Of a stretch of DNA of 64,000 bases, positions 37,570-64,000 are shown piece by piece (within the stretch, counting starts at the first letter, position 1; every line of letters starts with the position of its first letter). The notes under the pieces were generated by a model. That model had not been told where the DNA came from, did not search any database, and saw only the letters and a list, made by a program, of their open reading frames with translations. Both the position numbers and the translations under genes were made by a program. The stretch is from Halorubrum sp. DM2 (GTDB lineage: Archaea; Halobacteriota; Halobacteria; Halobacteriales; Haloferacaceae), in contig NZ_LR594487.1 of assembly GCF_901686465.1 (NCBI RefSeq), forward strand, positions 2,263,020 to 2,327,019, given 5' to 3'.

Positions 37570-38130
37570 CTACAGCGGACCGAGGGGCTCGACCGCCTCC
37601 ACCAACACGGCGGCGTTGCGGACCGCGACGGCGGCGAACAGCAGCGACGGCAGCCCGTAGCCGACGGCGCGGACCACCGGTGCGAGATGGCCGTCCCGCC
37701 GCCATCGCGCGACCGCGAGCGCGCCGATTTCGGTCACCGCGACGATCGCGACGACGACCGCGAACGAGCCGAAGAGGAGTCCGTCGGTGATCCCGAGCCC
37801 CTCGAAGACGGGTCGCGCGATCGGGTTCGCCTCGTAGACGGCCGGCGCGTACGCGAGGCCGACCCCAGTCGTGAGCGCGTCCGCGAACTTGGTCGCGAGG
37901 AGGAGACACATGCCCGACACCGAGAGGGTGATGCGGTCGTGGCCGCCGGTCTCAGTCGCGCACTCCGGGGGCCGACGCGGCCGTGTTGAACTCCGAGCGG
38001 AATCTCGGTCCCGGTCGGCAGACTGGCGAGTCGACGGGGGTCGCGGGCCACCCGGCTTTGTCCCGAGCGAGCGACGGGCTCCCTCCCCCTCCGACTGCCC
38101 CGGTCGCCGGTCCCGCTGAGACCGTGCCAT
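37570..38130 (-). CDS. DUF5658-type membrane protein
   Basis: The C-terminal 115 residues form a DUF5658-like domain of about four helices with the conserved ADALTTGVGLAY...EANPIARP pattern (Asp, Thr, later Asn-Pro). The N-terminal 70 residues of the open frame are arginine-rich, which is unusual for a haloarchaeal protein, so the true start could be nearer to the first helix (LSVSGMCLLLATK) at a non-ATG codon. The same domain is fused to a response regulator at 44778-45719. Function unknown. Confidence 0.65.
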   Translation of the reverse strand: MARSQRDRRPGQSEGEGARRSLGTKPGGPRPPSTRQSADRDRDSARSSTRPRRPPECATETGGHDRITLSVSGMCLLLATKFADALTTGVGLAYAPAVYEANPIARPVFEGLGITDGLLFGSFAVVVAIVAVTEIGALAVARWRRDGHLAPVVRAVGYGLPSLLFAAVAVRNAAVLVEAVEPLGPL

Positions 38131-39209: not shown

Positions 39210-40118
39210 CTAACTCGATGGCTCGCCGGTCAGCGTACCGACGGTGATCCCGTCCAGCAGGTCGACCGTCGCGCGTTCGCTCCCAAAGCCGTCGAGCGAG
39301 ATCCCGGCGGCGTTTCGGATACTCTCTTTTACGGTATCGCCGTAATCGATGTCTACTTCCAGGTCGATCGTCACCGCCTCTCCGGGTTCGAGGATAATGG
39401 CGTCGGCGGGCTTGTCGCGGTCATCACTGATCCCCTCGTCTCCGCCGACGAAGTTGGCATTTGTTTCATCTGTTATCTCGCCGTTGGTGAAATCTCCGTT
39501 CACGGCTGGCGAAATCAGCCCGTCCGTGTCGCCGTCGAGGTAATCGTTGCCCGTCGGATCGCTGTTATCGGTGAAAGTGTTCACCCTGAACCGATACGAG
39601 TTCCGCGGGATCGTCGGGGTGAGTCCACCCTCTCCGTTGACGTCGATGTCGCCACCGTACTGGCCCGTGCCGGCCGCGCTCGTGTCGAAGTCGGAGTTCC
39701 CCCGGTCATACGCGATACCAACCGCAACCGAATCCGTCGAATCGTTTTCGAGAATGAACAGCTCCTCGAACGTGTCCGACGCGCCGAGGCCCGCGACGGC
39801 GAACAGTTCGAGGTCGCCGTTCGCTTCGCCGTTCGTGGCCGCGAGCGGCGGCTCGACGTCTTCCCCGCCGAACGCTCCGTCCTCACTGTCGTCGATATCT
39901 TCCCCGTCGAAGAACCCTCCCTCGAAATCGTCGGTGCTTACCACGTTATCCGCACTCGTTGCGGCCGGATTCGGTCTGAAGTTGAGCGCTTCCTCGACGA
40001 CGACGCGGAGGTCCGCGCTCGGCGTCGTCGACGAGTTGAACGCGGCACCCGTGAACGCCGCGCCGCTTCCCATCGCCAGTGCGCCCATTCCGATCAACAT
40101 GCTGCGTCGCTTTGGCAT
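39210..40118 (-). CDS. Secreted SipW-type protein (DUF1102/TasA-like), 302 aa
   Basis: N-terminal signal MPKRRSMLIGMGALAMGSG followed by FTGAAFNSS and then ADLRVVVEEALNF. The spacing Gly-Ala-x-Phe after a hydrophobic core and the AD[LM]RVVV mature start are shared with the gene at 43290 and typical of archaeal DUF1102 proteins, relatives of bacterial TasA/camelysin fibre subunits. The mature part is rich in Asp/Gly, with beta-type segments FEELFILENDSTDSVAV and IILEPGEAVTIDLEVDIDYG. A SipW-like peptidase in the same cluster is the probable processing enzyme. ATG 40118 was chosen because the signal starts there, 36 bases after the shared promoter element. Confidence 0.75.
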   Translation of the reverse strand: MPKRRSMLIGMGALAMGSGAAFTGAAFNSSTTPSADLRVVVEEALNFRPNPAATSADNVVSTDDFEGGFFDGEDIDDSEDGAFGGEDVEPPLAATNGEANGDLELFAVAGLGASDTFEELFILENDSTDSVAVGIAYDRGNSDFDTSAAGTGQYGGDIDVNGEGGLTPTIPRNSYRFRVNTFTDNSDPTGNDYLDGDTDGLISPAVNGDFTNGEITDETNANFVGGDEGISDDRDKPADAIILEPGEAVTIDLEVDIDYGDTVKESIRNAAGISLDGFGSERATVDLLDGITVGTLTGEPSS

Positions 40119-40153
40119 CAAATATCCACCTACGCGAGAGAACGGGGAGGATC

Positions 40154-40176
40154 CACTTAATAGTAGGGAGCTTGAA
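40154..40176 (-). promoter_or_regulatory. Shared promoter element TTCAAG-N12-AAGTG, copy 1
   Basis: On the minus strand TTCAAG and AAGTG are separated by 12 bases and lie 36 bases before the secreted-protein ATG at 40118. The same spacing recurs at 41671-41693 and 43979-44001 ahead of two other secreted-protein genes. The distance to the gene fits a BRE/TATA-region element or an activator site. Confidence 0.55.
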
Positions 40177-40268
40177 ACGACGCAGATTCGGCCTGAATCC
40201 GGAGAAAGCCCGGCTTGAAGCCGATCGACGGCCGATTTTATGCGTGATGTTATCAAATAAACACGCGA

Positions 40269-40892
40269 ATGTACTCACGCCGCGCGACGCTCGCTGCCGC
40301 CGTCGCCGCGACTGCCGGGCTCGCCGGCTGTCAGGGCGTCGGGATCGAGGTCCCCGGCGTCGGCGGTGGCGACGAACTGGCACAATAGGACCGACGGCGC
40401 GAGGTCCTCGACCGATACGAAGCCGGTATTGAGGGGCGCAACGACGGGATCTCGACGCGCAACCGAGCGATCTCCCTCTTCAACGAGGAGCAGTACCAGA
40501 CGGCGGTCGACGAGTTCGAGACGGCCCGGACGGGCTTCCGGAGCGCGGCGACCGATCTCGAAGCCGCCGTGGAGGCCGCCGCCGAGCTTGATCCCGCCGC
40601 CGACTCCGACGGCTCCGGTACGAACACGTCCGATGGCGACGACGGCAACGGCGATGATGGCGACAGCGATGACTCTCCTGATCCTGCCGCGATCTGTGAG
40701 CGGACGCTCGCGGAGGTCCAGACCCAGATCGAGGCGACGGACGTGGGACAGGCCGCCGCGGTCGCGGCCGTTGAGGAGGCTGACGGCACGACGATAAACG
40801 ATCATATTGAGGAGTACCGGTCACTCGTCGAGGAGGCGTCCGCGACCTCGATCACCGAACCGGAGGGGCTCTCGGAGATTCTCGGCTTCTGA
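40269..40892 (+). pseudogene. Lipoprotein gene interrupted by an in-frame TAG
   Basis: ATG 40269 opens a clear lipoprotein signal (MYSRRATLAAAVAATAGLAG, then Cys21). Codon 40 is TAG (40386-40388), after which the same frame continues, without shift, as a well-formed acidic haloarchaeal protein (DRRREVLDRYEAGIEGRNDG onward) to 40892. The continuation has helical repeats, an Asp/Gly-rich linker and a Cys near residue 142. With the stop ignored it would be about 207 residues. The simplest view is a single-base nonsense mutation in a surface lipoprotein; readthrough or a sequencing error are alternatives. A TATA-like tttat is just upstream (about 40235). Confidence 0.75.
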
Positions 40893-41075
40893 CGTCGAAC
40901 AGCGGAATCGCGCCCGATGGCCGTGAAGAAGTTACGATTATCTTAAATATCACCGACCCGAGTGACTGGGTTGTATGATACGTCGTCGGTGCGGGGTCCC
41001 GGAGCGCTCGACTACCGGACCGGCGCGTCGGACACGGCTCGGCGTCGCCGTCGGACCGCCGCGGCGACGGGTCGA

Positions 41076-41624
41076 ATGATGTCGCTCACGGGCCAAGAGA
41101 AGTACGACGCTCCCGAAAAAGACGAACTCTACGACCTCCTGAGCAGCCACCGCCGGCGGTACGTCCTCCACTACTGTAAACAGACCGAGGAGCCGGTCAC
41201 CCTCTCGGAGCTCGCCGAACAGGTCACCGCGTGGGAACACGATAAGACGGTTCCGGAGATCACGTCCTCGGAACGCAAGCGCGTGTACACCTCGCTCCAG
41301 CAGACGCACCTCGATCGCCTCGAAAACGCTGGACTCGTCGAGTACGACGGCGACGAGGTGTCGCTTACGAGCGACGCGAAGGGGCTCGACGTCTACCTCG
41401 ATATCGTCCCCCCGCAGTCGATCTCGTGGGGCGTCTACTACCTCGGGCTGTCGCTGCTGGCGGGCGTCGTCCTCGGCGGCGTCTGGGTGGGTTTTGTCCC
41501 CACAGAGACGGTTCCCGAACTCGGCTGGGCGGGGCTCGTACTCGTCGCGTTCCTCGTCTCCTCGGTCGCGCACGTGGTACAGATCCGCCGGAACCGACTC
41601 GACCAGTTCGAGCGCCCGCCATGA
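41076..41624 (+). CDS. HTH transcription regulator with two C-terminal membrane helices
   Basis: A 182-residue protein with an N-terminal winged-helix domain of the haloarchaeal DUF7344 type (DELYDLLSSHRRRYVLHYCK, then LSELAEQVTAWEHD and HLDRLENAGLVEYDGD) and two transmembrane helices at about 119-141 and 148-168. The frame is open from 40962, but the extension is basic; the ATG at 41076 is preferred, with moderate certainty. A membrane-attached DNA-binding protein next to surface-protein genes suggests local regulation, which is inference. Confidence 0.72.
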   Translation: MMSLTGQEKYDAPEKDELYDLLSSHRRRYVLHYCKQTEEPVTLSELAEQVTAWEHDKTVPEITSSERKRVYTSLQQTHLDRLENAGLVEYDGDEVSLTSDAKGLDVYLDIVPPQSISWGVYYLGLSLLAGVVLGGVWVGFVPTETVPELGWAGLVLVAFLVSSVAHVVQIRRNRLDQFERPP

Positions 41625-41670
41625 TCCGGCTCCGGGGACGCGGACGACTCGTTCGGGTAGAATCTCGACG

Positions 41671-41693
41671 TTCAAGGGCACCAATACGAAGTG
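41671..41693 (+). promoter_or_regulatory. Shared promoter element TTCAAG-N12-AAGTG, copy 2
   Basis: TTCAAG at 41671, then 12 bases and AAGTG ending at 41693; inside the spacer is the CAATAC box also seen at 43990. It agrees with the copy at 43979-44001 in 18 of 23 positions. It lies 138 bases before the start of the secreted repeat protein, farther than the other copies, so that mRNA probably has a leader. Confidence 0.5.
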
Positions 41694-41831
41694 CGTGGAA
41701 CTCGAAGTCCTACGTAGAGCGACTATTCCACCCTGTCCGCCGGCTGGCGTTCCGATCGTCACGCGTGCGGTCCGGAGGACGCCGAGGCGATCGGTGACGC
41801 GACGAACGACGTCGGTCCGAGGATTCAACTT

Positions 41832-43271
41832 ATGGCACGAAAACGTAGCCGGAGCCGAAGCCGGTCGGGCGGTGGGATAAGCCGCCGCTCCGTTCTGCTG
41901 CTTCTGGGTGTCGGGACCGCCAGCGCGACCGGCGCGTACACGACCGGCGCGTTTGACTCAGTTTCTGGCGACCGTTCGATCGGCGTCGACACCGCGGGCG
42001 ACGATACGGCGCTGCTCGGCGTCGACACCGAGGACCGCTCCGGGACCGACGGCGAGACGATCACGCTGTTGGAACTGACGAACCAGTTCGGTCAACCGAT
42101 CGAGTCGATCGACGCCGAGGTGGTCGGCGGGTCCGACGGGCCGGTCGACCCGAACTCGCTGCGGACGCCGATCGGGTTGGCTCCGGGTGAGTCCGGCGTC
42201 GTCGAGGCTGACCTGTCGTGTGAGACCAGCCGCGACACGACCGTCGAGGTCGCGGTCACCGTGACCGGAGCGGACCAGTCGGTCGATCTCACCCGGTCCG
42301 TCGACGTGAGCTGTACGGTCCCGGATCGGGGCGTGTGCGCGCCGCGCACGCCGTCGGGTTGTACGGACGCGGAGTTCCCGCCGTGGGGCGGCACCGACTG
42401 TAGCGTCGTGATCGACACCACCGGAGAAGTCTCCGAGCGGATCGGCGGCGGGATCGAGGTCGGCGGTGCCGTCGACATCCGGACGGACAGTGCGGTCGAT
42501 ATCACCCATCGCGGGAGCGTCGGTGACTACTTCGGTATCGACACCGACGGCGAGATCGCCTTCTCCATGGGCGGCGGCGCGACGGTCGGCGGTCCACTTC
42601 AGCTGTCGACGCCGGACGAGGTGACCGCCGACATCAGCGGAAGCGTTGCCGGCGGATTCTGTGCCGACGAGGCGGGCAACCTCACCGTGACCGTCGGCCG
42701 CGGGGGGAGCGTCGGCGGACCGATGTCCCTGACGTCGAACGATGAAGTGACCGTCGATCTGAACGGTAACGCGTCGGTGGGACCGCTTTCTATCGAGGCG
42801 TCCAGTGAGGTCGACGTGAGCCTCGGCGGCGGCTCGGAGATCGACGGAGACATCGACATCGAGACGCCCGACGGCGTGAATTTGACGCTGGATGGTAACG
42901 AGCGGATCCGTGGCGACGTGTTGATCACGAGCGAAGACGAGGTGGGAATCGAACTCTCCGGTAGCTCGACGATCGAGGGCGACGTGACGATCGACACGCC
43001 CGGCGAAGTGGAGATCGAACTCGGCGGTCGCTCGTCGATCGGCGGCGACGTGACAGTCACGAACGAGGACGAGGTGGGGATCGAGCTCGGCGGCAGCTCG
43101 TCGATCGGCGGCGGCGCGACGGTCACGAGCGAAGGCGAGGTAGCGATCGAGCTCGGCGGCCGCTCGTCGGTCGGCGGTGATGTCGCGATCGACACCTCGG
43201 ACGAGGCGTCCGTCTCCGACTGTACCGCGGTGGTCGGGAGCGTCACCCCGCAGAGTGCGTGCGGCGGGTAG
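41832..43271 (+). CDS. Secreted SipW-type protein with beta-solenoid repeats, 479 aa
   Basis: After a basic start (ARKRSRSRSRSGGGISRRS) comes a hydrophobic signal and the junction TGAYTTGAFDSV, then RSIGVDTAGDDTALLGV, the same mature module as in the gene at 44024. Residues to about 155 form a beta domain (ITLLELTNQFGQPIESIDAE). A Cys cluster (CTVPDRGVCAPRTPSGC) follows. From about residue 195 to the end there are roughly a dozen imperfect repeats of 20-25 residues with the pattern DEVxIELGGxSxIGGDVxI, predicting a long beta-helix. Two Cys lie at the very end (SDCTAVVG, SACGG). Probably an extracellular rod-like surface or matrix protein. Confidence 0.75.
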   Translation: MARKRSRSRSRSGGGISRRSVLLLLGVGTASATGAYTTGAFDSVSGDRSIGVDTAGDDTALLGVDTEDRSGTDGETITLLELTNQFGQPIESIDAEVVGGSDGPVDPNSLRTPIGLAPGESGVVEADLSCETSRDTTVEVAVTVTGADQSVDLTRSVDVSCTVPDRGVCAPRTPSGCTDAEFPPWGGTDCSVVIDTTGEVSERIGGGIEVGGAVDIRTDSAVDITHRGSVGDYFGIDTDGEIAFSMGGGATVGGPLQLSTPDEVTADISGSVAGGFCADEAGNLTVTVGRGGSVGGPMSLTSNDEVTVDLNGNASVGPLSIEASSEVDVSLGGGSEIDGDIDIETPDGVNLTLDGNERIRGDVLITSEDEVGIELSGSSTIEGDVTIDTPGEVEIELGGRSSIGGDVTVTNEDEVGIELGGSSSIGGGATVTSEGEVAIELGGRSSVGGDVAIDTSDEASVSDCTAVVGSVTPQSACGG

Positions 43272-43289
43272 TCTCTCGACGACGCCGGT

Positions 43290-43838
43290 CTACTCGTCCC
43301 CCTCGTGTGCGGCCGTGATGAATAACTGGAGCTCCGCGGCCGACTCCGGGAAGTCGGAGATACCCGACTCGGAGCTCGGGAGGAGGTCGACGGAGATCCC
43401 GAACCCGACCCCGTCGCCCGGTCCCAGCCCGCCGTCCGGCGTCAGGGTGAACGTCCCGTTCTCCTCGTCGAGGTCGCCGTCGGCGGTGATCCCGAGCGCG
43501 GCCGCGACCTCGTCCGCCTCGTCGCCGTCTCCGGCGTCGAACTCGAACCGCAGCTCGTCGTAGCCGATGTTGCCGTCGTTCACGACGCGGACGAGGTCGC
43601 CGAACTCCGTCAGCGCGTGTCGGTTCAGGCGCTCGACCGCGATCACGACCTCCCCGTCCTCGGTAGTCACGTACGGCCCGTCGTCGTTGGCGGGTTCGAG
43701 CCGGAGGTCCGAGACGACCACGACCCGCATGTCCGCGCCGGCCGACACGCTCGACGTGAACGTCCCGGCAGAGGCGGCAGCGCCGCCGCCGACGGCCGCC
43801 GAGGCGAGTCCAATGATCGTCTGTCTGCGTGTCACCAT
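43290..43838 (-). CDS. Secreted SipW-type protein (DUF1102), 182 aa
   Basis: Signal MVTRRQTIIGLASAAVGGGA, junction SAGTFTSSVS and mature start ADMRVVVVSDLRLEPAND, as in the DUF1102 family and the gene at 39210. The mature domain contains FGDLVRVVNDGNIGYDELRF and ends with a beta-type segment around GDGVGFGISVDLLP. Size suits a fibre subunit. ATG 43838 begins the signal; a CAATACAAA box lies on the minus strand at 43891-43899, about 55 bases upstream. It is divergent from the gene at 44024 and converges with the solenoid protein gene. Confidence 0.78.
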   Translation of the reverse strand: MVTRRQTIIGLASAAVGGGAAASAGTFTSSVSAGADMRVVVVSDLRLEPANDDGPYVTTEDGEVVIAVERLNRHALTEFGDLVRVVNDGNIGYDELRFEFDAGDGDEADEVAAALGITADGDLDEENGTFTLTPDGGLGPGDGVGFGISVDLLPSSESGISDFPESAAELQLFITAAHEGDE

Positions 43839-43978
43839 GTGTAGATTTGCGAGGAGTCGTCGGTTGGATCTCCCTAGTGGCCCGGCGGGTTTTGTATTGG
43901 CGGTCCTGTCGGGCAGCAAGGCCGGCTTGAACGCCGCGAACGACCCTTTCAAGCCGGGCCAGACGCCGCCGCCGCCGC

Positions 43979-44001
43979 GTCAAGGGACGCAATACAAAGT
44001 G
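43979..44001 (+). promoter_or_regulatory. Shared promoter element TTCAAG-like-N12-AAGTG, copy 3
   Basis: GTCAAG, then GGACGCAATACA, then AAGTG, ending 22 bases before the ATG at 44024. The CAATACAAA core is where a TATA box should be for a leaderless transcript. It matches the elements at 40154 (minus) and 41671 in both half-motifs and spacing. The intergenic strip also has CAATACAAA facing the other way (43891-43899) for the divergent gene. Confidence 0.55.
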
Positions 44002-44023
44002 GGTAGGGGGACATTGTGTAGAT

Positions 44024-44680
44024 ATGCCCAACAGACGCAACGTCCTGATCGGACTCGGCGGACTGGTCGCCGGCGGCGGCGCGCTCATCGGTACGGGCGC
44101 GTTCACGACGGTGGAAGCAGAGCGGACCGTGACGGTGAACACTGCCGGCGACAGTTCCGCGCTCCTCGCATTTGCAGAAGCCGGTGATGGTACAGGCTCG
44201 GATGTCGTAAATATCGTCGACGGTCTTCTAACGATCAACTTCGACAACGCCAGCGGTGAGAACGGATCGGGGGATGATCTCGCAGGGGGCGTCAATCTCA
44301 ACGCGCGGACGACTATCGGTGCCGTGAGCGGCGGTGATCCTCCGGATACAGTGGACACGGCAGCGTTCACAATCACGAATAACGGCTCTCAAACTGTCGA
44401 CATCAGCTTCGATATCGGGTTTAACGGAAATCAGAACTCACTTCCGAGTGGTACTAATCCAGAAGACATTCTCAAGCTCTGGACTGATGCGAGCGGGACT
44501 GAAGACATCGGAGGTGACATCGGGAACCTCGTCGCAACCGATTTGACTGGTTTAGAATCTGGAAACTCCGTTGACGTGGCACTTCAAATCGACACGGTCG
44601 GATTCGACAGTACCGATCTCAACACAGATGCCCCGTTGTTCGAGACGGAAGCGACCATCACCGCCACCAACCCACCGTAG
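44024..44680 (+). CDS. Secreted SipW-type protein (TasA/camelysin-like), 218 aa
   Basis: Signal MPNRRNVLIGLGGLVAGGGA, junction IGTGAFTTVEAERT and mature start VTVNTAGDSSALLAF, a pattern frequent in haloarchaeal secreted proteins and shared with the gene at 41832. The rest is a beta-rich acidic domain with VDTAAFTITNNGSQTVDISF and SVDVALQIDTVGFD. Its 3' half has lower GC and more T-ending codons than its neighbours, hinting at exchange of that part. It is a likely substrate of the SipW-like peptidase encoded 1 kb downstream on the other strand. Confidence 0.76.
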   Translation: MPNRRNVLIGLGGLVAGGGALIGTGAFTTVEAERTVTVNTAGDSSALLAFAEAGDGTGSDVVNIVDGLLTINFDNASGENGSGDDLAGGVNLNARTTIGAVSGGDPPDTVDTAAFTITNNGSQTVDISFDIGFNGNQNSLPSGTNPEDILKLWTDASGTEDIGGDIGNLVATDLTGLESGNSVDVALQIDTVGFDSTDLNTDAPLFETEATITATNPP

Positions 44681-44777
44681 AATAACTCTCATTTTCGTCG
44701 CTGGTCCTTTGGATATCGAGCGCACCTGATTTTTCAGTACATCCATTTAACAAGCGGCCAAGTATACCCGTACACGA

Positions 44778-45719
44778 ATGCCGCGCCCCCCCGTCGTCCT
44801 CATCGTCGAGGACGAACCCAACCTCGCCGACCAGTACGCGGCGTGGCTCGACGACGACTACGAGGTCCGGACCACAATCGACGCCGAGACGGCCCTCGAA
44901 GAGTTCGACGAATCGGTCGACGTCGTCCTCCTCGACCGCCAGCTTCCGGACGCCTCCGGGGCCGGACTGCTCGGCCGACTCAGGGCGCGGGACGGCGACT
45001 TCGCGGCCGCGATGATAACCGGGATCAAGCCCGACTTCAGAGTCTTACAGCTCGATGTCGACGAGTACGTCACGAAACCCGTCAAGCGCGACGAACTCCG
45101 CGCGCTCGTCGAGCGGCTCACGGACCGGCGGGCGGTCGAGGAGGCGGTCGACGGCTACCTCTCACTTCTGGCGAAAAAACGGGCGAGCGAGGCGGACTCT
45201 TCCCACGGGGAGCCGGCGTCCGATTCACGGTCCGACTCGTCGTCCGGGGAACTGCTCGCGCGCCGCCGACAGATCGAGTCGCTGCTCGTCCGGCTGGGAA
45301 CGCCCGCCGACGAGTCCTCGGCCATGTTTCCGGACGACGAAGGGCGCGTCGACGGCACCGGCGAGACCGGGGCGGGAGAGCCGCCGCTCTACCGCTCTCG
45401 ACCGACCGAGTTCTACGGACTCTGGTTGCTCGCGGCGCTGACGTACGGCGTCGGCGACGTGGTCTCGACGCTGTACGCGGTCCTCGGAGTCACCGGAATC
45501 GACGAGGTCAACCCGGTGGTGGGGTCGCTCCTGACGACCTTCGGCATACCGGGCTTTCTCCTCCTGAAGTTCCTTGTCTTTCTTGTGTTGATCTCCGTGA
45601 GCGTTCAGGGCGCTCGGACCGCCGACCGGTTCTCGTACTACTGGCCGCCGGTGGTGATGGCGCTGCTCGGCGTGGGTCTCACCGCGTGGAACCTCGCGAC
45701 GATCGCGGGTGCCGGGTGA
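44778..45719 (+). CDS. HalX response regulator fused to a DUF5658-like membrane domain
   Basis: Residues 1-120 are a receiver domain (IVEDEP, phospho-acceptor in VVLLDRQLPDASG, Lys in VTKPVKRDEL). Residues 120-180 contain a HalX helical hairpin (VEEAVDGYLSLLAKKRASEA and LLARRRQIESLLVRLG). After an acidic linker, residues 214-313 form about four membrane helices with DVVSTLYAVLGVTGIDEVNP, matching the stand-alone DUF5658-type gene at 37570. So a soluble phospho-receiver is tethered to a small membrane domain. No sensor kinase is adjacent. It is flanked by secreted-protein and signal-peptidase genes. Confidence 0.82.
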   Translation: MPRPPVVLIVEDEPNLADQYAAWLDDDYEVRTTIDAETALEEFDESVDVVLLDRQLPDASGAGLLGRLRARDGDFAAAMITGIKPDFRVLQLDVDEYVTKPVKRDELRALVERLTDRRAVEEAVDGYLSLLAKKRASEADSSHGEPASDSRSDSSSGELLARRRQIESLLVRLGTPADESSAMFPDDEGRVDGTGETGAGEPPLYRSRPTEFYGLWLLAALTYGVGDVVSTLYAVLGVTGIDEVNPVVGSLLTTFGIPGFLLLKFLVFLVLISVSVQGARTADRFSYYWPPVVMALLGVGLTAWNLATIAGAG

Positions 45720-45730
45720 GGACGCCGGAC

Positions 45731-46897
45731 TCACAGCCACTTGCGGACCGTCCGGCGAACGGTGTCGACGACGGAGGTGTCGCGGCCGGTGTCGCGGAAC
45801 CGGAGCGGCTGGAACCCGACGGCGAGCGCGAAGACGACGGTGACGACGACGGCGATCACGAGGTCGATCGCCGCGATCGCGACGACAGGATGGACGGCGT
45901 GAAGGGCCACGATAACCGACAGCGGAAGGAGTCCGAGGTACTGGCGCTCGGAGATCGACCGGTAGTAGACGCCGGTCTCGTCGGGCGCGTGGATGGTCGC
46001 GGTGGTGCCCGCGCTCTGCCCGCGCCAGATCCAGTGGGTCGTCTCCGCCACCTCGACGCCCGTGCTGGCGGGCTCGATGATCGCCACCTGCGGGAAGACG
46101 CCGCTGTTCGAGATGTTGTACGTCACGGTCTGGGATCCCCCTCGTTCGATGGTCGTCGGGTTCGAACTCGGCGACTCCGAGCTCACGACCGTGATCTCGT
46201 TGACGCCCGAGGGAATCACCATGCTCGCGGTCGCCGGCACCAAGATTAGCAACAGGATGACGGCGAGCACGAGACCGGCCCGCGTCGCCCCCTTCCGCGA
46301 CCGCGATCGGTCTCTGCCGCCGCGGTCGCTCCCCAGCAGATCGGCGGCGAAGCTGTACAGCAACAGCAGGACGCCGCCGCCGACCATGAGCGTCTCCACG
46401 TTCCCGTCCGCGACCGCGTCGCCGCCCGGGAGGCCGGATAGGACGCCTATCACCGCGCCGAACGCGCCTTGGAGTGCGAGCGCGACGGTCCCGATCGACG
46501 GGATGACGACCAACTCGCCGTCGAACTGGAGCGCTACCGAGACGATCTGCGACTCCTGTACCGGTGGCTCATCGCCGTCCTGATCGGTGAACGGATTGGC
46601 GTCGCCGCGGGTGACGTATCCCTCGTCGGTCTCGCCGACCACGCGGTGGGTGGTGAGCCCGCCGCCCTGGAGTTCCCGTGCGTCGAAGGTCACGACGTCT
46701 CCCTCCTCGATGTCGTCAGCCAGCACCGGGGGGACCGCGACGAACCCGTCGCCCGGTTCGAGCGTCGGCGACATGCTCCCGGTGACGACGAACCCGAGGA
46801 GGATCGGCTGGCCAAGCTGCTGACCGACGAGCATGGCGACGATAACGGCCACGAGCGCGAGCGTCGCGACCGAGCCGAGAGACGATCGAAGTTCCAT
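45731..46897 (-). CDS. SipW-like signal peptidase I (S26B family)
   Basis: A 388-residue membrane protease. After one N-terminal helix, the catalytic Ser is in VTGSMSPTLEPGDG (Ser41) and the second catalytic residue is a His in LTTHRVVGET (His84), not Lys, which defines the archaeal/ER/SipW type; Asp99 lies in VTRGDANPF. A later region has two more helices, a beta domain (VTYNISNSGVFPQVAIIEP) resembling the substrates' fold, and two C-terminal helices. This is much longer than housekeeping archaeal peptidases. It probably cleaves the four SipW-type proteins of this cluster. A TATA-like gtatatac is about 30-35 bases upstream (46927-46936). Confidence 0.87.
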   Translation of the reverse strand: MELRSSLGSVATLALVAVIVAMLVGQQLGQPILLGFVVTGSMSPTLEPGDGFVAVPPVLADDIEEGDVVTFDARELQGGGLTTHRVVGETDEGYVTRGDANPFTDQDGDEPPVQESQIVSVALQFDGELVVIPSIGTVALALQGAFGAVIGVLSGLPGGDAVADGNVETLMVGGGVLLLLYSFAADLLGSDRGGRDRSRSRKGATRAGLVLAVILLLILVPATASMVIPSGVNEITVVSSESPSSNPTTIERGGSQTVTYNISNSGVFPQVAIIEPASTGVEVAETTHWIWRGQSAGTTATIHAPDETGVYYRSISERQYLGLLPLSVIVALHAVHPVVAIAAIDLVIAVVVTVVFALAVGFQPLRFRDTGRDTSVVDTVRRTVRKWL

Positions 46898-46982
46898 CCC
46901 CTATTCGTCGGTGCGTTCGTCGGTCATACGTATATACGCCGCGGCCAAGCCACGTGTGCTGGGCGCGTTCGCTGTCGTCCGA

Positions 46983-48101
46983 TCATCCGCCAAACCGTTC
47001 GAACTCCTCCATCGTCGTGTCCGCGTAGTTGATGAGCCAGTCCTCAGCCGGCGAGTCGGGTCGGACGTACACGTAGATGTAGTCGCCGTCGAGGACGGTG
47101 CTCACGCCCAGCTGTTCGTCTTTGATCACGCGTTTGTTCGTGTCGATGGCGACGTCGACGAGCCCCTCTAGGTCGTCGACGAGGATGGTCTGCTCGTAGT
47201 CGCGTTCGGACGGGAACGTGCCGCGGGTGATCCACTCGGAGAACTCCTGTTCCTGTTGGTGGAGTTCGAGGAGTTCCCGCTCGTCGGCGGAGAGGCCGAC
47301 ACGTCCCGTGCGTCTCGCGTGGACAAGCCCGCCGAGCCCGGCCAGCGCGAGCAGCGACAGGACCACCGGTGCGGTCGACTCGACTGCTCCCGATCTGACG
47401 GGCCGTTCGACCGTTCGCGTCTGCGTTTCGGTCTCGTCGACGGTCTCCATCTCGAGAACGCGGAACGTCGTCGGCGTCACCGTGATCGGCATCTCGCTCT
47501 CGTAGGTGTGCTCGACCGAGTCACCGTCGATCGTTCCCTCGATATTCGATGTCGAGACGATCCGGATCTCGATGGTTCCTACGGTACCGAGCTGTTGTTC
47601 AACCGTGTTGATCGTCTCGTATACGTCCGTAATGACTAGCGTCGCGTTGACCGTGTGTGGTGTCCCCGGATCGAGCCCCGTCGCGGTGCCTGTCGCGAGC
47701 GGCTCCGAGTACTCCCAGAGAGTCGTTTCGCCCTCGATCCCACGGTACTGAACCCGCGTCTCCGTGTTTACCTGTACCGCACCGTCGTTGGCCGCGTACT
47801 CGTACCGATAGCTGACGTCGACCTCCTCGGACAGCCTCGTGTAGTACACCGGGCGGTTCGTGACGCGCTCGCCCTCGTCGAAGGGGATCGACTCGTTCAC
47901 GATGACCGAGCTGTGTTCGTAGCTCGTGGTCTCGGACCACCGCTCGGTCGTCACCTGATCGGTCTCGACGGTCTCGGTGGCGTGAACCTGATACGCCCAC
48001 GTGCCGCCCGCGACCGCGACGACGAGGAGTGCGACGGCGACGACGAGGAACCACCGATCGAGCAGCGCCCGTATCCGGACTGAGCGGTCGATCTCGCCCA
48101 T
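46983..48101 (-). CDS. DUF5305-type membrane protein
   Basis: A 372-residue protein with a signal-anchor helix at about 18-42 (LVVAVALLVVAVAGGTWAY), a large extracellular beta domain (SEEVDVSYRYEYAANDGAVQ onward), a second helix at about 254-273 and a cytoplasmic C-terminal domain of about 95 residues. This matches DUF5305, which in haloarchaea is found beside SipW-like signal peptidases. ATG 48101 was chosen over the open extension to 48194, which is Arg/Ser-rich. It lies between the signal peptidase and the RecA-fold gene on the same strand, so the three form an operon. Confidence 0.8.
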   Translation of the reverse strand: MGEIDRSVRIRALLDRWFLVVAVALLVVAVAGGTWAYQVHATETVETDQVTTERWSETTSYEHSSVIVNESIPFDEGERVTNRPVYYTRLSEEVDVSYRYEYAANDGAVQVNTETRVQYRGIEGETTLWEYSEPLATGTATGLDPGTPHTVNATLVITDVYETINTVEQQLGTVGTIEIRIVSTSNIEGTIDGDSVEHTYESEMPITVTPTTFRVLEMETVDETETQTRTVERPVRSGAVESTAPVVLSLLALAGLGGLVHARRTGRVGLSADERELLELHQQEQEFSEWITRGTFPSERDYEQTILVDDLEGLVDVAIDTNKRVIKDEQLGVSTVLDGDYIYVYVRPDSPAEDWLINYADTTMEEFERFGG

Positions 48102-48105
48102 CCGA

Positions 48106-49527
48106 TCACTCCAGTCGGACGCCGACCGAGTCGATCGAGACGACCTCGTCGAACAGCGGCTTGAGCGTGTTGACGTTCTGCGGGTCGCCCGCACGCGGGT
48201 CGACGTGGAAGTGCGCGATCACGCCCGCTCCCTGAAGCGTCCCGAGGAAGACGTGGAGGAACCGGAACGCGCTCTGGACGTCCTTGTACTTGAGGAGGAC
48301 GTTCACCGAGTCGTAACACACGACGATCCCGTTGTCGTCTTCCGCCCAGCTCTCGACGGTTCCCGAGATGAGGATCCCGAGCCGGGTGATGTCGTTCGGA
48401 TTGTTGATCGAGGCGACTTCCACCTCGTCGCGCACGTCGTCCGGAACGGACTGTGAGTAACCGATCGCGACGAGTTTCGTTCGGTGTGCCGCGCTCGCGA
48501 TCGCTTCGAGCTGCTCGGGATCCATTCGGCGGTATCTGACGAGGAGTACGTCGCGCGCGGTCGCCGCCGTTTCGAGGCCGAGCAGGTCCCGACAGGCGGC
48601 GTGTTTTCGCTCGTCCTGTGACCCGCACTCGACGAGGGCGCTCGTTCCCGGCTCCAGATCGAGTCCGGCCGGCCGTTGGTAGCTCTCCTCGGGCCCAGCG
48701 GCAAGGTCACCGCCGCTCGTCGACGCGGTCCCGCCGCGCAACAGCGGCTCCGACTGACCCTCCTCCGTCGTACCAGACTCCGGAGACGCCCTCGAAGTGC
48801 CCTCGCGACTGTCCTCACGGTTCCACAGTCGACGACGCTCGGAGCGTTCTTCCCCCTCATCGTCCCCACGCGAGTCGTCGTCCCCACGCGAGTCGTCGTC
48901 CCCACGCGAGTCGTCGTCCCCACGCGAGTCGTCGTCCCCACGCGAGTCGTCGTCTCCACGAGAGTCGTTTTGCCCGGCCGCGTCGGCAGTCGACTCGGTC
49001 TCGGCGTCTCCGTTCCGCTCGGACGCGTCGGCGGGAACGGCGTCGTCCGGGTCGTCGTCCGCCGTCGCGTCCGGTTCGCTGAGAGACGCCTCGTCGTCCG
49101 CTCTGTCGTCATCCCAGACCCGGCGACCGGCCGACGCATCGTCGATCTGCGCCTGCTCGTCTCTCCGCCCCTCGTCGTCGGCCTCGCCGTCGGACGCCTC
49201 GGCGGGCCCTCCGTCGCGTCCGGACTCCGTCGACTCGCGCGTGTCGCGCTCGTTGTCATCCCCGATCCACTCCCACGAGTCTGCCGGACCGTTCCCGGAC
49301 CGCTCTTCCGTGTCTTCCGGTCCGGCTGAGTCCGTTCCGTCGACGTCGTTCTCGCCGCCGTCGCTCCCGTCGGCGTCAGCCTCGGTCGACCCGTCCGAGC
49401 CGGACGAGGTCGATCCCTCAAGCCGCTCTCTGAACTCGCCGAACCGCGACGATCGGTCGTCCGTCCCGGTCACTTCCGTGTCGGGCTCGTCGGCTTGTCG
49501 CTTACCGTCGTCGCGCTCGTCGCTCAT
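48106..49527 (-). CDS. RecA/KaiC-fold protein lacking Walker A, with long acidic repeat region
   Basis: The C-terminal 200 residues have a RecA/KaiC-like pattern, with strands DVLLVRYRRMDPEQLEAIAS and NGIVVCYDSVNVLLKYKDVQ in place of Walker B and FLGTLQGAGVIAHFHVDP after it. The position of Walker A reads GTSALVECGSQDERKHAAC with no GKT/S, so ATP hydrolysis is unlikely. The N-terminal 270 residues are acidic and disordered and include six SRGDDD units. ATG 49527 is preferred. The gene ends four bases before the DUF5305 start and is transcribed toward it, so it may be a cytoplasmic partner of the export cluster. Confidence 0.72.
   Translation of the reverse strand: MSDERDDGKRQADEPDTEVTGTDDRSSRFGEFRERLEGSTSSGSDGSTEADADGSDGGENDVDGTDSAGPEDTEERSGNGPADSWEWIGDDNERDTRESTESGRDGGPAEASDGEADDEGRRDEQAQIDDASAGRRVWDDDRADDEASLSEPDATADDDPDDAVPADASERNGDAETESTADAAGQNDSRGDDDSRGDDDSRGDDDSRGDDDSRGDDDSRGDDEGEERSERRRLWNREDSREGTSRASPESGTTEEGQSEPLLRGGTASTSGGDLAAGPEESYQRPAGLDLEPGTSALVECGSQDERKHAACRDLLGLETAATARDVLLVRYRRMDPEQLEAIASAAHRTKLVAIGYSQSVPDDVRDEVEVASINNPNDITRLGILISGTVESWAEDDNGIVVCYDSVNVLLKYKDVQSAFRFLHVFLGTLQGAGVIAHFHVDPRAGDPQNVNTLKPLFDEVVSIDSVGVRLE
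48860..48967. repeat. Six tandem 18-bp units encoding SRGDDD
   Basis: The plus strand repeats tcgtccccacgcgagtcg about six times, the last unit slightly degenerate (ctccacgagagtcg). The repeats lie within the coding sequence of the RecA-fold protein and keep its frame. Near-identity of the units indicates recent slippage or unequal exchange. Confidence 0.85.
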
Positions 49528-59531: not shown

Positions 59532-60722
59532 ATGAATATGGCCGACTTCTCGTTCACTCCGAACGACGCTATCTTCGAAAATCGGGAGGCGCTCCTCGAA
59601 GAGTGGACGCCGGACAGCCTTGTCGGGCGGGACGAGGAGCTCACCCGATACCACGCCGCTCTCCAACCCGTCATCAACAACGAGACTCCCTCGAACGTCT
59701 TTCTCTACGGAAAAAGCGGGGTGGGAAAGACTGCGGCCACGCGCTATCTTCTCCGCACGCTCGAAGGGGACGCAACCGACGTGCCGGAACTCGAACTCAC
59801 GACGATCGAGGTCAACTGCGACGGCCTGAACACGTCCTATCAGGTGGCCGTAAAACTCGTTAATGAACTCCGGGAGCCGGGACGGCAGATCTCCAACACG
59901 GGGTATCCACAGGCGAGTGTGTATGAGTTCCTCTTCGACGAACTCGACACGTGTGGGGGAACGGTTCTCATCGTCCTCGACGAAGTCGATCACATTGGTG
60001 ACGATTCGTTGCTGTACAAACTGCCGCGTGCTCGCTCGAACGGCGACATCAGCGACGCGAAGCTCGGCGTCATCGGCATCTCGAACGATCTGGACTTCCG
60101 GACGCAGCTGTCCTCGAAGGTTCGATCGTCGCTTTGTGAGAAGGAGGTGTCGTTCAGCGCGTACGACGCCGACGAGCTCCGACTCGTCCTCGAACAACGC
60201 GAGCGGGTCGCGTTTCAGGACGGCGTTCTCGAAGACGGAGTTATCGCGATGTGTGCAGCGTACGGCGCAAAGGACTCCGGTGACGCACGGAAGGCGTTGG
60301 ATCTCCTCTTGGAGGCCGGAGACGTTGCACGCGAGAGCGGGTCGGACGTCGTGACCGAGGCGCACGTTCAGAAGGCCCGTGAGCGCGTGCAGATGGATCA
60401 AGTGGTAGAGGGCATCCAGAACTACTCCGAGCACGGGAAGCTCGTGTTGTACGCACTCACGCTACTCCACGAACGTGATGAGACGCCAGCACGGACGCGC
60501 GAAGTCGTTGAGACGTACCGGGAGGTGGCTCACTCGGAGGGGGTGAGTCCGGTGTCGGAGCGCTCGGTACGTGACTATCTCGGCGAGTTGGCGCAGCTGG
60601 GAATCACGAGTTCGACGGAACACAACCGCGGGAAAGGCGGCGGAAAGTACAACGAACACCGGTTGACACAGTCCGTTTCGGCAGTTCGGAGTGGGTTATC
60701 GACGTTGTTGGAGTCGGCTTAA
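59532..60722 (+). CDS. Orc1/Cdc6 replication initiator
   Basis: AAA+ initiator that binds the adjacent origin boxes. Walker A YGKSGVGKTAATRYLL, Walker B LIVLDEVDHIGD, sensor 1 IGISNDLDF and the arginine-rich sensor 2 region (KDSGDARKALDLLLEAGD) are present. A C-terminal winged helix (TLLHERDETPARTREVVETY onward) contacts DNA. The TATA box tttatata at 59507-59514 is 18-25 bases before the ATG at 59532, so the mRNA is leaderless or nearly so; the ATG at 59538 is an alternative. 396 residues is normal. Confidence 0.95.
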   Translation: MNMADFSFTPNDAIFENREALLEEWTPDSLVGRDEELTRYHAALQPVINNETPSNVFLYGKSGVGKTAATRYLLRTLEGDATDVPELELTTIEVNCDGLNTSYQVAVKLVNELREPGRQISNTGYPQASVYEFLFDELDTCGGTVLIVLDEVDHIGDDSLLYKLPRARSNGDISDAKLGVIGISNDLDFRTQLSSKVRSSLCEKEVSFSAYDADELRLVLEQRERVAFQDGVLEDGVIAMCAAYGAKDSGDARKALDLLLEAGDVARESGSDVVTEAHVQKARERVQMDQVVEGIQNYSEHGKLVLYALTLLHERDETPARTREVVETYREVAHSEGVSPVSERSVRDYLGELAQLGITSSTEHNRGKGGGKYNEHRLTQSVSAVRSGLSTLLESA

Positions 60723-60756
60723 GCAGGGTTCGATTGCGGTGGTGTCTGTTCCGTGC

Positions 60757-60780
60757 TAACAGCGGAAGCGGTGGGGTGGG
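60757..60780 (+). other. Downstream origin recognition box
   Basis: TAACAGCGGAAG followed by CGGTGGGGTGGG is a seventh box of the same type as those upstream of the orc1/cdc6 gene, located 35 bases after its stop. Origin boxes on both sides of a cdc6 gene are known in haloarchaea. Confidence 0.75.
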
Positions 60781-60799
60781 TGTGGGGCGGCTCCACACA

Positions 60800-60994
60800 A
60801 TCTTCCACGCGTGTCATCTCGTTCAGCCGTCGAATCGTGGTGAGTACGAGATCAGCGAGGCTATCGACTTACTGATTCAGAGCGGGCGGACGATCGACGC
60901 GATCGGACTAGAGGGCTGGCGGATCGACGCAGGGTATCCCGAAGATCGAGAGGAGGCTGAGCGGCGGTCACAGGGAGGGGAAGTGGAAGCCTGA
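60800..60994 (+). pseudogene. 3' fragment of an AglF-like nucleotidyltransferase gene
   Basis: The frame encodes the last 64 residues of an AglF-like protein (IFHACHLVQPSNRGEYEISE onward to EVEA-stop). It aligns without gaps to 58837-59031 with about 33 differences in 195 bases, many of them at third codon positions. No start or catalytic part is present, so it is a truncated remnant. It lies directly after the last origin box and may be the original gene end left after the origin-cdc6 segment was inserted or exchanged. Confidence 0.82.
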
Positions 60995-61094
60995 CAAAAT
61001 CTGTTGACTCAATTAACTCAGCCTACTCTTGATTCGGTATCGATTGGACTTTTCGGTCGAATTAAGTCCACGCGTATAATGTAAACCGAACGTC

Positions 61095-62558
61095 ATGGCC
61101 TCACTTCTTCGGTCGATACTCTCTATCTTTTCAGGGAAAGTCGTCGGCATACTGATTAGCTTGGTGTTCACTCCGATTCTTGTCCGAATTATCTCTCAAG
61201 CGCAGTACGGCTTGTATGCAAGTGTATTGGCTGGATTTGGTATTGTAACGCTGCTCTCTAAAGGGGGGCTGTTTGACGCGACCCGGAAAACGGTCGCTGA
61301 ACACATCGACAACCCAACTGAGATTTCGTCGGTCATCTCTACGTCGTTGCTCCTTAGCGTGATTTACGGGTTGATCGCCACTGCTCTCGTATTTCTGAGT
61401 CTCCGCTTGGAGATTGTCCCCTCCCGATACACGCCGTATGTCTGGGTACTCACCGGTGCGATACTCTTCACGAACGTCTTCGCGATCGTCAAAGGAGCCT
61501 TCTACGGCCTCCAGAAAGAGTCAGTCGGTGAAGTCCTAAACATCGCACGCCGGCTGATATACACGGCTGGCGCGTTGTCACTCGCATACATTGGGTACGA
61601 CGTGGTAGGTGTGTTCGCCGCGTACGCGTTCTCATTTTTGCTTCTTAGTATATCGGGAGCCGTCGTACTGACGAGATATTCCTCATTTGGATTACCGGGA
61701 CGAGACGATCTTGTAACATATGGTCGGGGGATTTCGACTTTTGGTGGGTATCAATTGGTTGGCGGACTGAGTGCGATGTTGCTGTACCGAACTGACATCC
61801 TTCTCGTTGAGTTCTTCAAAGGGGGGACGTTTACCGCCCTCTATCAAAGTGCAATAACCCCCGCTGAGATGATCTGGTTCGTCCCGTCCGCGATACAGAT
61901 GGCGTTCCTCCAGCACACGGCGAGCCTCTGGAGCTCCGATCAGATCGACGAAATCAATGAGAATATACAAACGGGAGTCAAATATGCCGTCCTCTCGTTG
62001 ACACTCTTCGGTGTCGGCTTGGTGGTCCTCGCAGAGCCATTCCTAACTGCTTATTTCGGCCCGGAATACACGGATGCGACTACAACGCTCCAGGTACTTG
62101 TCTTCGGGACGTTCTTTTTCGGTATTACTAGAGTCATCGTTCCTGTGTTCCAAGCAGCAGGCTGGGTACGACATACGGAACTCATTACGTTTGGTGCGCT
62201 CATTCTTAACGTCCTCTTGAACGTTACCCTCATCCCTCGATACGGTATTATCGGGGCCGGAATCGCGACTGGACTGTCTTACGTCGCCATATTCGTCGGG
62301 AATGTCACGCTCTGGAAGTACTCTCCATTCGACATCGTTCCGCTGAGGTGGGCCGGCAAGCTCGCAATGACGCAAGGGATCTTCGCTGTTCTCTTTCTCG
62401 GTCTCGTCAGATTTATTGATCTCTCACCGTGGCCTTCGCTGCTCGTGTTCCCCCTGTTGGGATTGGTACTGTTCCTCGGTATCAATATCACGGCCGGGTA
62501 CGTACCGACTCAGCCGGCACAGCCCTACCTAAAGCGTGCGAAGAGGTTCCTGTCCTAG
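61095..62558 (+). CDS. Polysaccharide flippase (Wzx/AglR type, MOP superfamily)
   Basis: A 487-residue membrane protein with about 14 hydrophobic helices, starting LLRSILSIFSGKVVGILISL, typical of lipid-linked oligosaccharide flippases. It would move lipid-linked glycans across the membrane for S-layer glycosylation or polysaccharide export. GC content is clearly lower than in the genes before 60.7 kb and codon use is more relaxed, consistent with horizontal exchange. It converges with the glycosyltransferase gene, overlapping by four bases. A TATA-like cgtataat is at 61073-61080. Confidence 0.9.
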   Translation: MASLLRSILSIFSGKVVGILISLVFTPILVRIISQAQYGLYASVLAGFGIVTLLSKGGLFDATRKTVAEHIDNPTEISSVISTSLLLSVIYGLIATALVFLSLRLEIVPSRYTPYVWVLTGAILFTNVFAIVKGAFYGLQKESVGEVLNIARRLIYTAGALSLAYIGYDVVGVFAAYAFSFLLLSISGAVVLTRYSSFGLPGRDDLVTYGRGISTFGGYQLVGGLSAMLLYRTDILLVEFFKGGTFTALYQSAITPAEMIWFVPSAIQMAFLQHTASLWSSDQIDEINENIQTGVKYAVLSLTLFGVGLVVLAEPFLTAYFGPEYTDATTTLQVLVFGTFFFGITRVIVPVFQAAGWVRHTELITFGALILNVLLNVTLIPRYGIIGAGIATGLSYVAIFVGNVTLWKYSPFDIVPLRWAGKLAMTQGIFAVLFLGLVRFIDLSPWPSLLVFPLLGLVLFLGINITAGYVPTQPAQPYLKRAKRFLS

Positions 62559-63775: not shown

Positions 63776-64000
63776 AATTGAACCTAGTCTATTTATCTAT
63801 TTGATGTGACTTATACGCTGCTATCGAGGATATACATGTGTCTGTACCGCATTTACCTTGGAGTTATACTGGTTGATAATATTTCAACATCTAACCTGTG
63901 GATATAATATTGGCATTTATATATAATATACACTCCACACTCTCCTCTTTCTCCTCTCCCTCAGAACCAAATTGCTTAATAGCGCCGAGAATGTAAGAGT
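63776..64000. other. AT-rich end of the window
   Basis: About 225 bases with very low GC and many TATA-like strings (for example 63905-63930). The block at 63776-63810 may be the promoter of the glycosyltransferase gene. No gene start is visible before the window ends. Confidence 0.5.

What the first reader, a model, noticed from the sequence alone, without database searches (positions are those of the whole stretch)
39210..49527. Candidate dedicated system for surface fibres: four SipW-type substrates with a SipW-like peptidase
Within 11 kb lie two DUF1102-type proteins (AD[LM]RVVV start), two of a second type (R[TS][VI]xVxTAGDxxALL start), a 388-residue Ser/His signal peptidase, DUF5305 and a RecA-fold protein in one operon, plus HTH, CheY and HalX regulators. 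Bacterial TasA with SipW and archaeal bundling pili use this fold and processing. The set suggests a multi-component fibre or matrix with one solenoid protein, a peptidase and local control. The peptidase even carries a substrate-like beta domain.
Basis: partly seen in the sequence, partly recalled or inferred. Interest (0 to 1): 0.7.

Follow-up and report, generated by a model that had tools for sequence, protein, structure and literature searches.

The report
Variant haloarchaeal Tat-fimbria gene cluster
This stretch of a salt-loving archaeon's genome (a Halorubrum) encodes a private kit for building surface hairs of the recently described "tafi" (Tat-fimbria) kind: four related hair proteins, the enzyme that probably trims them and likely controllers, with one hair protein carrying an unusual long coiled-ribbon head that may sit at the tip.

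Summary
All four substrates belong to one family with the solved tafi pilin (PDB 9P0A, "Natrinema sp. J7-2 Tafi pilus"). The near-identical pilin gene of Natrinema pallidum lies in the same kind of locus: pilin, second Taf-like protein, this peptidase, DUF5305, divergent DUF7344. In 99 genomes the 388-residue peptidase co-occurs with DUF5305 (58 both, 37 neither, 4 discordant) and with TafE-like proteins (55/35/9).

Corrections. The signal peptides are twin-arginine (Tat) type, not Bacillus SipW/Sec type. No DUF1102 match was found. The peptidase's beta domain is not detectably substrate-like. HalX is seen only in orthologues.

What is new is the variant. The window's peptidase falls in a well-supported clade paired with a membrane-bound response regulator, and no TafF was detected. 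Its TafC-like protein keeps the conserved N-domain, but its head is a 22-residue-period beta-solenoid (pLDDT 96-98). Across haloarchaea the same N-domain carries LamG, ricin-type, bactofilin-like or solenoid heads, which looks like an exchangeable tip adhesin.

Not shown: filaments, cleavage, tip position. Novelty: new variant of a known kind. Interest 0.45.

The parts
39210..40118 (-). Tat-signal substrate 1 (303 aa, MPKRRSMLIG...); distant Taf-like subunit with a long insert, possibly an adapter
   Evidence: RR followed by a 30-residue uncharged run; TafE profile 2.5e-6, N-terminal; profile comparison with the other substrates 85-88%; orthologue L220 E 3e-102
40962..41624 (+). DUF7344 winged-helix protein with a C-terminal membrane segment; likely local transcription regulator of the fimbria genes
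   Evidence: Pfam DUF7344 5e-29; DUF7344 near the peptidase in 57 of 76 loci although the own genome has only 9 copies
41832..43271 (+). TafC-like protein: Tat signal (RR at 18-19), TafC N-domain (about 42-162), beta-solenoid head (about 175-479, 22-residue repeat); proposed tip adhesin
   Evidence: TafC 2.6e-28 over 17-164; AlphaFold pLDDT 96-98 over 190-470; 22-residue periodicity; beta-helix match 2uvf Z 15.5 over 283 residues
43290..43838 (-). Tat-signal substrate 3 (182 aa, MVTRRQTIIG...); Taf-like beta-sandwich subunit
   Evidence: TafE profile 1.1e-7 over 2-159/176; A2 profile vs 9P0A 8.6e-44; model pLDDT 82, best folds 7UEG and 9P0A
44024..44680 (+). Tat-signal substrate 4 (218 aa, MPNRRNVLIG...); best candidate for the major pilin
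   Evidence: phmmer to 9P0A tafi pilin 1.8e-15 over the full length; TafE 4e-19, TafA 1.7e-12, both below cut-off
44778..45719 (+). Membrane-bound response regulator: receiver domain, HalX-like linker, DUF5658-like membrane domain; marks the window's locus subtype
   Evidence: Response_reg 4.4e-16, DUF5658 0.001; orthologues L078 and L079 score over the HalX cut-off; adjacent to the peptidase in 11 rows of one clade and in no other row of the tree
45731..46897 (-). Dedicated SipW/archaeal-type signal peptidase, 388 aa, catalytic Ser41/His84 (Asp99, Asp105 invariant), with an extra external beta domain and C-terminal membrane segments
   Evidence: TIGR02228 59 bits, over its cut-off of 51.85; alignment of 51 homologues; genome co-occurrence
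46983..48101 (-). DUF5305 membrane protein, operon partner of the peptidase; possible assembly or anchoring platform (inferred)
   Evidence: DUF5305 2.7e-51; same strand and adjacent to the peptidase in 51 of 76 loci
48106..49527 (-). DUF7504 protein with a long disordered acidic N-terminus, first gene of the operon; cytoplasmic accessory or regulatory protein, function unknown
   Evidence: DUF7504 5.2e-40; present in 12 of 80 named peptidase loci, mostly Halorubrum, Haloferax and Halobellus

Best explanation
The locus is a variant tafi (Tat-fimbria) assembly cluster of a Halorubrum. Four related beta-sandwich subunits are made with twin-arginine signal peptides and exported, probably already folded, through the Tat pore. 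They stay tethered by the uncleaved signal anchor. The linked Ser/His signal peptidase cuts after the conserved G-T/A-x-A-F region and frees the N-terminal strand, which inserts into the neighbouring subunit (donor-strand exchange) to build the thread. The 44024 protein is the likely main pilin, the 43290 and 39210 proteins are minor or adapter subunits, and the TafC-like 41832 protein is a minor subunit, probably the tip, whose beta-solenoid head makes contacts. DUF5305 is a membrane partner of the peptidase, perhaps the platform. DUF7344 and the membrane-bound HalX-type response regulator control expression. Shown by sequence or computation: the gene set, family membership, Tat motifs, the intact peptidase active site, the conserved linkage and the solenoid fold. 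Inferred: cleavage of these substrates by this peptidase, donor-strand assembly, the role of each subunit, tip position and regulation.
For: Homology to the solved tafi pilin 9P0A: 1.8e-15 for 44024 alone and 8.6e-44 for the 70-sequence profile. 9P0A is titled 'Structure of Natrinema sp. J7-2 Tafi pilus'. The near-identical Natrinema pallidum pilin gene (L061:6549-7202, E 6.5e-116) lies in the same locus layout with peptidase, DUF5305 and DUF7344. L040 carries TafA, TafC, TafE and TafF over their NCBIfam cut-offs beside the same peptidase and DUF5305. Twin Arg invariant in 70 of 70; with a profile built without signal peptides, 154 of 177 relatives have it and most of the rest are Sec/TM-anchored forms, many TafF-like. 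Genome co-occurrence: Fisher p 2e-22 and 6e-17, uncorrected for phylogeny. Fold: 7UEG and 9P0A rank first.
Against: No experiment on this organism. All four substrates score below the NCBIfam equivalog cut-offs for TafA, TafC and TafE. No TafF was detected in the genome, so how the fibre is anchored is open. Structural Z-scores for 43290 (7.2-7.9) barely exceed unrelated beta-sandwiches (6.9). 39210 is only distantly related to the others.
Confidence: 0.85

Rival explanations
1. The substrates make a non-filamentous extracellular matrix or surface coat (adhesive layer) rather than threads, with the peptidase only as a maturation enzyme.
For: Several Taf-like proteins have large non-pilin heads, and no filament has been seen here; TasA-family proteins can also have matrix roles.
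Against: Full-length homology of 44024 to a pilin whose structure was solved as a pilus, and identical locus architecture around the Natrinema pilin.
Confidence: 0.1
2. A bona fide TasA/SipW system (Sec-exported subunits, SipW-type cleavage) transferred to or shared with archaea.
For: Peptidase is of Ser/His SipW/archaeal type (NF046067 2.8e-7, TIGR02228 over cut-off); GxGAF motif at the end of the signal; TasA-like/bundling-pilus fold.
Against: Signal peptides are Tat, not Sec; SipW equivalog cut-off not reached; no TasA, camelysin or SipW-cognate signal family matched.
Confidence: 0.06
3. The four substrates are separate secreted proteins that only share a signal-peptide type, and the housekeeping peptidases process them; the cluster is coincidental.
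For: Two other signal peptidases exist in the genome; 39210 is divergent.
Against: Linkage and co-occurrence across dozens of genera; mutual homology in the mature domains (hhalign 95-100% for three of the four).
Confidence: 0.03

Closest known systems
Tat-fimbriae (tafi) of haloarchaea: TafA/TafC/TafE/TafF (Galeva et al. 2025, iScience 28:111793, cited in PMC12687288; paper itself not held) and the Natrinema J7-2 Tafi pilus, PDB 9P0A
   Same: Homologous subunits with twin-Arg signals; the same peptidase, DUF5305 and DUF7344 neighbours in loci L040 and L061
   Different: Subunits below the equivalog cut-offs; no TafF found; TafC head is a beta-solenoid instead of LamG; distinct peptidase clade with an adjacent membrane-bound HalX-type response regulator and DUF7504
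[quoted passage not shown]
   Same: Best structural match to the 43290 model (Z 7.9, 126 residues); donor-strand-complemented beta-sandwich subunit (literature)
   Different: 11% identity; different archaeal phylum; Z-score close to background
Bacillus TasA/TapA/SipW (PMC9674648)
   Same: Peptidase linked to fibre subunits; Ser/His SipW-like active site; in TasA the donor strand begins right after the cleavage site, as proposed here
   Different: Tat instead of Sec signals; more subunits, including head-bearing minor ones; SipW equivalog score not reached; extra beta domain on the peptidase

Membership tests
tafi (Tat-fimbriae) | Fibre subunits carry twin-arginine (Tat) signal peptides | tested here: met
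   All four have RR followed by 22-30 uncharged residues; R4 R5 invariant in 70 of 70 aligned relatives
tafi (Tat-fimbriae) | Major pilin homologous to the solved Tafi pilus | tested here: met
   44024 vs 9P0A E 1.8e-15 over 213 residues
tafi (Tat-fimbriae) | Gene cluster layout seen around known tafi pilins (peptidase, DUF5305, DUF7344) | tested here: met
   L040 with TafA/C/E/F over cut-off and L061 with the 9P0A-like pilin share it
NCBIfam TafA/TafC/TafE equivalogs | Curated score cut-offs of NF052520, NF052521, NF052522 | tested here: not met
   Best TafC 99 of 410 bits, TafE 69 of 155, TafA 48 of 190. These models define close equivalents only: the homologue of the solved Natrinema tafi pilin also fails them (78 of 155), so this bars the names TafA, TafC and TafE, not the system
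tafi (Tat-fimbriae) | TafF-type Sec-exported, membrane-anchored partner | tested here: inconclusive
   No NF052523 match in the own genome, with no positive control in that run; no anchored Taf-like ORF seen in the locus
tafi (Tat-fimbriae) | Thin filaments seen on cells | not testable with these tools
   Needs electron microscopy
TasA/SipW | SipW equivalog score and SipW-cognate signal peptide or TasA/camelysin family match | tested here: not met
   NF046067 30 of 190 bits; no TasA, camelysin or SipW-cognate signal family among the matches
TasA/SipW | TasA-like jelly-roll fold with an N-terminal donor strand | tested here: inconclusive
   43290 model: 7UEG Z 7.9, 9P0A Z 7.2, FimA and p53 6.9; TasA itself not in the list
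Archaeal/ER-type (Ser/His) signal peptidase I | TIGR02228 cut-off and Ser/His catalytic pair | tested here: met
   59.2 vs 51.85 bits; S41 and H84 invariant in 51 sequences
DUF1102 | Pfam DUF1102 match | tested here: not met
   No Pfam match at E<=0.1 for 39210, 41832, 43290 or 44024
Type IV pili or archaella | Class III signal peptide, prepilin peptidase, assembly ATPase | not tested
   No such gene was matched among the locus genes scanned; the signals are Tat-type

The most novel reading that the evidence does not exclude
Tafi are tipped by a modular adhesin: one conserved docking N-domain (TafC-N) carries interchangeable heads (LamG lectin, ricin-type lectin, bactofilin-like or 22-residue beta-solenoid), so lineages retarget the fibre by exchanging one domain. 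The window belongs to a separate tafi lineage with solenoid heads and no TafF, in which a membrane-bound HalX response regulator beside the peptidase may couple fibre assembly to gene expression.
Probability: 0.45. Interest if true: 0.6.

Novelty: new variant of a known kind. Interest (0 to 1): 0.45.

Why it matters
Tafi are a newly described class of archaeal fibre, and few of their parts have a described role. This work ties the solved Natrinema pilus, the NCBIfam TafA/C/E/F locus and dozens of unannotated haloarchaeal loci into one system with a near-obligate peptidase and DUF5305. It suggests that Tat-exported, folded subunits are made assembly-competent by a dedicated SipW-type peptidase, and it points to a head-swapping tip adhesin as the variable part. 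That gives direct tests of how donor-strand fibres can be built from already folded exports, and of what haloarchaea stick to.

Tried and rejected
DUF1102 identity: no Pfam match. Substrate-like beta domain on the peptidase: hhalign about 11%; DUF5305 external domain vs substrates about 1%. Neither was folded, because both prediction jobs went to substrates. TasA itself as a fold match: not listed by Foldseek or VIA for the 43290 model; absence is not evidence against it. Viral structure library for the solenoid model: only weak matches to the N-domain region. Foldseek in PDB likewise matched mainly the N-domain; the solenoid match came from VIA. The Galeva et al. paper and the bundling-pili paper are not held, so I could not check which parts of the locus they describe. 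A profile iterated from the TafC N-domain drifted to all Taf subunits, so heads were taken only from ORFs that also matched a single-pass search. A first count of RR motifs (141 of 175) used the wrong domain start; it was replaced by a mature-only profile count, 154 of 177. The careful maximum-likelihood tree did not finish; the clade statement rests on the quick tree. DNA-level relatives of the 43293-44677 stretch on plasmids: none.
Full report
CHECK OF THE OBSERVATION. Hidden-Markov scans give DUF7344 for the HTH protein, a receiver domain plus a weak DUF5658 match for the "HalX" protein, an archaeal-type signal peptidase I over its cut-off, DUF5305 and DUF7504. None of the four secreted proteins matches Pfam, so "DUF1102" is not supported. 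NCBIfam release 20 matches all four to TafA, TafC or TafE, fimbrial proteins of the haloarchaeal Tat-fimbriae, below the equivalog cut-offs. The operon DUF7504-DUF5305-peptidase has gaps of 4 and 85 bases if starts are taken at 49527, 48101 and 46897. In the whole genome (3.45 Mb, one contig) the TafE profile finds four genes, all in this locus. There are three signal peptidases, of which this one scores best, and a single DUF5305.

WHAT IT IS. The protein at 44024-44680 matches one solved structure over its full length, PDB 9P0A (1.8e-15). The structure library titles that entry "Structure of Natrinema sp. J7-2 Tafi pilus". A profile of 70 relatives built around the 43290 protein finds 9P0A at 8.6e-44. 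The four proteins form one family: mature-domain profile comparison gives 100% (43290 vs 44024), 95-97% (TafC-like N-domain vs either) and 85-88% for the distant 39210 protein. The AlphaFold model of 43290 (mean pLDDT 82) has its two best matches in Pyrobaculum bundling pili (7UEG, Z 7.9) and the tafi pilus (9P0A, Z 7.2). FimA and p53 follow at 6.9, so the fold evidence alone is weak.

EXPORT. All four carry a twin-arginine followed by 22-30 uncharged residues. The pair is the only invariant feature of the 70-sequence alignment. With a profile made from mature domains only, 154 of 177 relatives have the twin-Arg signal; most of the rest have Sec signals, many with a C-terminal membrane anchor like TafF. 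This differs from Bacillus TasA, whose signal is cut by SipW and whose donor strand (residues 28-38) begins right after the cut (PMC9674648). In 9P0A, 188 of 215 residues are modelled and the chain reaches residue 215. If there are no internal gaps the modelled part starts at about residue 28, that is after GTGA, which would fit the same logic (inference).

DEDICATION OF THE PEPTIDASE. In 99 genomes of the order, the peptidase and DUF5305 are both present in 58, both absent in 37 and discordant in 4. The peptidase and TafE-like proteins are both present in 55, both absent in 35 and discordant in 9 (Fisher p 2e-22 and 6e-17, not corrected for relatedness). In 76 fetched peptidase loci, a Taf-like substrate lies within 8 kb in 71, DUF5305 in 67 and DUF7344 in 57, against nine DUF7344 copies in the whole own genome. 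The Natrinema pallidum gene that is nearly identical to the solved pilin (6.5e-116) sits in just such a locus (L061). Locus L040 has TafA, TafC, TafE and TafF over their cut-offs next to the same peptidase and DUF5305. Ser41, His84, Asp99 and Asp105 are invariant in 51 peptidases. The external beta domain near the C-terminus is conserved in the family but shows no profile similarity to the substrates (about 11%).

THE VARIANT. The window's peptidase falls in a 13-row clade (SH-aLRT 100, quick tree only). In that clade 11 rows have the membrane-bound response regulator next to the peptidase, and no other row does. The clade includes Halorubrum laminariae, H. salinum, H. halodurans and H. trapanicum. 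No TafF was found in the genome.

THE SOLENOID. The 41832 protein joins a Tat signal, the TafC N-domain (residues about 42-162) and a head whose model has pLDDT 96-98 over residues 190-470, with strands recurring every 22 residues (autocorrelation peak at 22). Its best structural match is the beta-helix of an exopolygalacturonase (Z 15.5 over 283 residues). Heads similar to it follow a TafC N-domain in nine further proteins, most of them from the window's clade. Among 77 heads that follow this N-domain, 15 match LamG, 7 bactofilin, 6 DUF5649 repeats and 3 ricin-type lectin. The NCBIfam TafC model itself is N-domain plus a C-terminal part that matches LamG-type proteins, which is why it matches only residues 17-164 here. 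The most economical reading is a conserved docking domain with exchangeable adhesive heads. That it sits at the fibre tip is an inference.

MECHANISM AND LIMITS. The proposed sequence is: Tat export of folded subunits; membrane tethering; peptidase cut; release of the N-terminal strand; donor-strand exchange; growth of a thread carrying a head-bearing minor subunit; control by DUF7344 and the membrane regulator. Shown: gene set, homology, signal type, active site, linkage and solenoid model. Not shown: filaments, cleavage by this enzyme, subunit order, regulation and the roles of DUF5305 and DUF7504. The primary tafi paper is not held; it is known here only through its citation in PMC12687288, so some of this may already be described there.

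VERDICT. A new variant of a known, recently described system.

Noticed in passing
L216 (PULR01000059.1): A contig labelled as a Mollicutes MAG carries a haloarchaeal tafi locus whose peptidase is 72% identical to the window's; probably a mislabelled or misbinned contig.
   Followed up: no
window 60001-64000: G+C falls from about 0.67 to 0.51-0.56 at the end of the window, possibly an integrated element or low-GC island.
   Followed up: no
window 48106-49527: The DUF7504 protein has a disordered acidic N-terminus with a head-to-tail repeat of about six SRGDDD units; the conserved domain lacks a Walker A motif.
   Followed up: no
window 37570-38130 (-): Small membrane protein with a weak DUF5658 match (E 0.003), the same domain that is fused to the response regulator at 44778-45719.
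   Followed up: partly
window 40389-40892 (+): Acidic ORF between substrate 39210 and the DUF7344 gene with no significant family match; function unknown.
   Followed up: partly
H2, H5, H6 (Natrialba magadii and Halorubrum sp. PV6 plasmids): Tafi-type peptidase homologues lie on 13 plasmid records, so the system is partly plasmid-borne; several genomes carry two to four peptidase loci.
   Followed up: partly
L206, L180, L189, L162: TafC-type proteins whose heads look like bactofilin or FapA-type beta-solenoids; bactofilin-like folds outside the cell would be unusual.
   Followed up: partly
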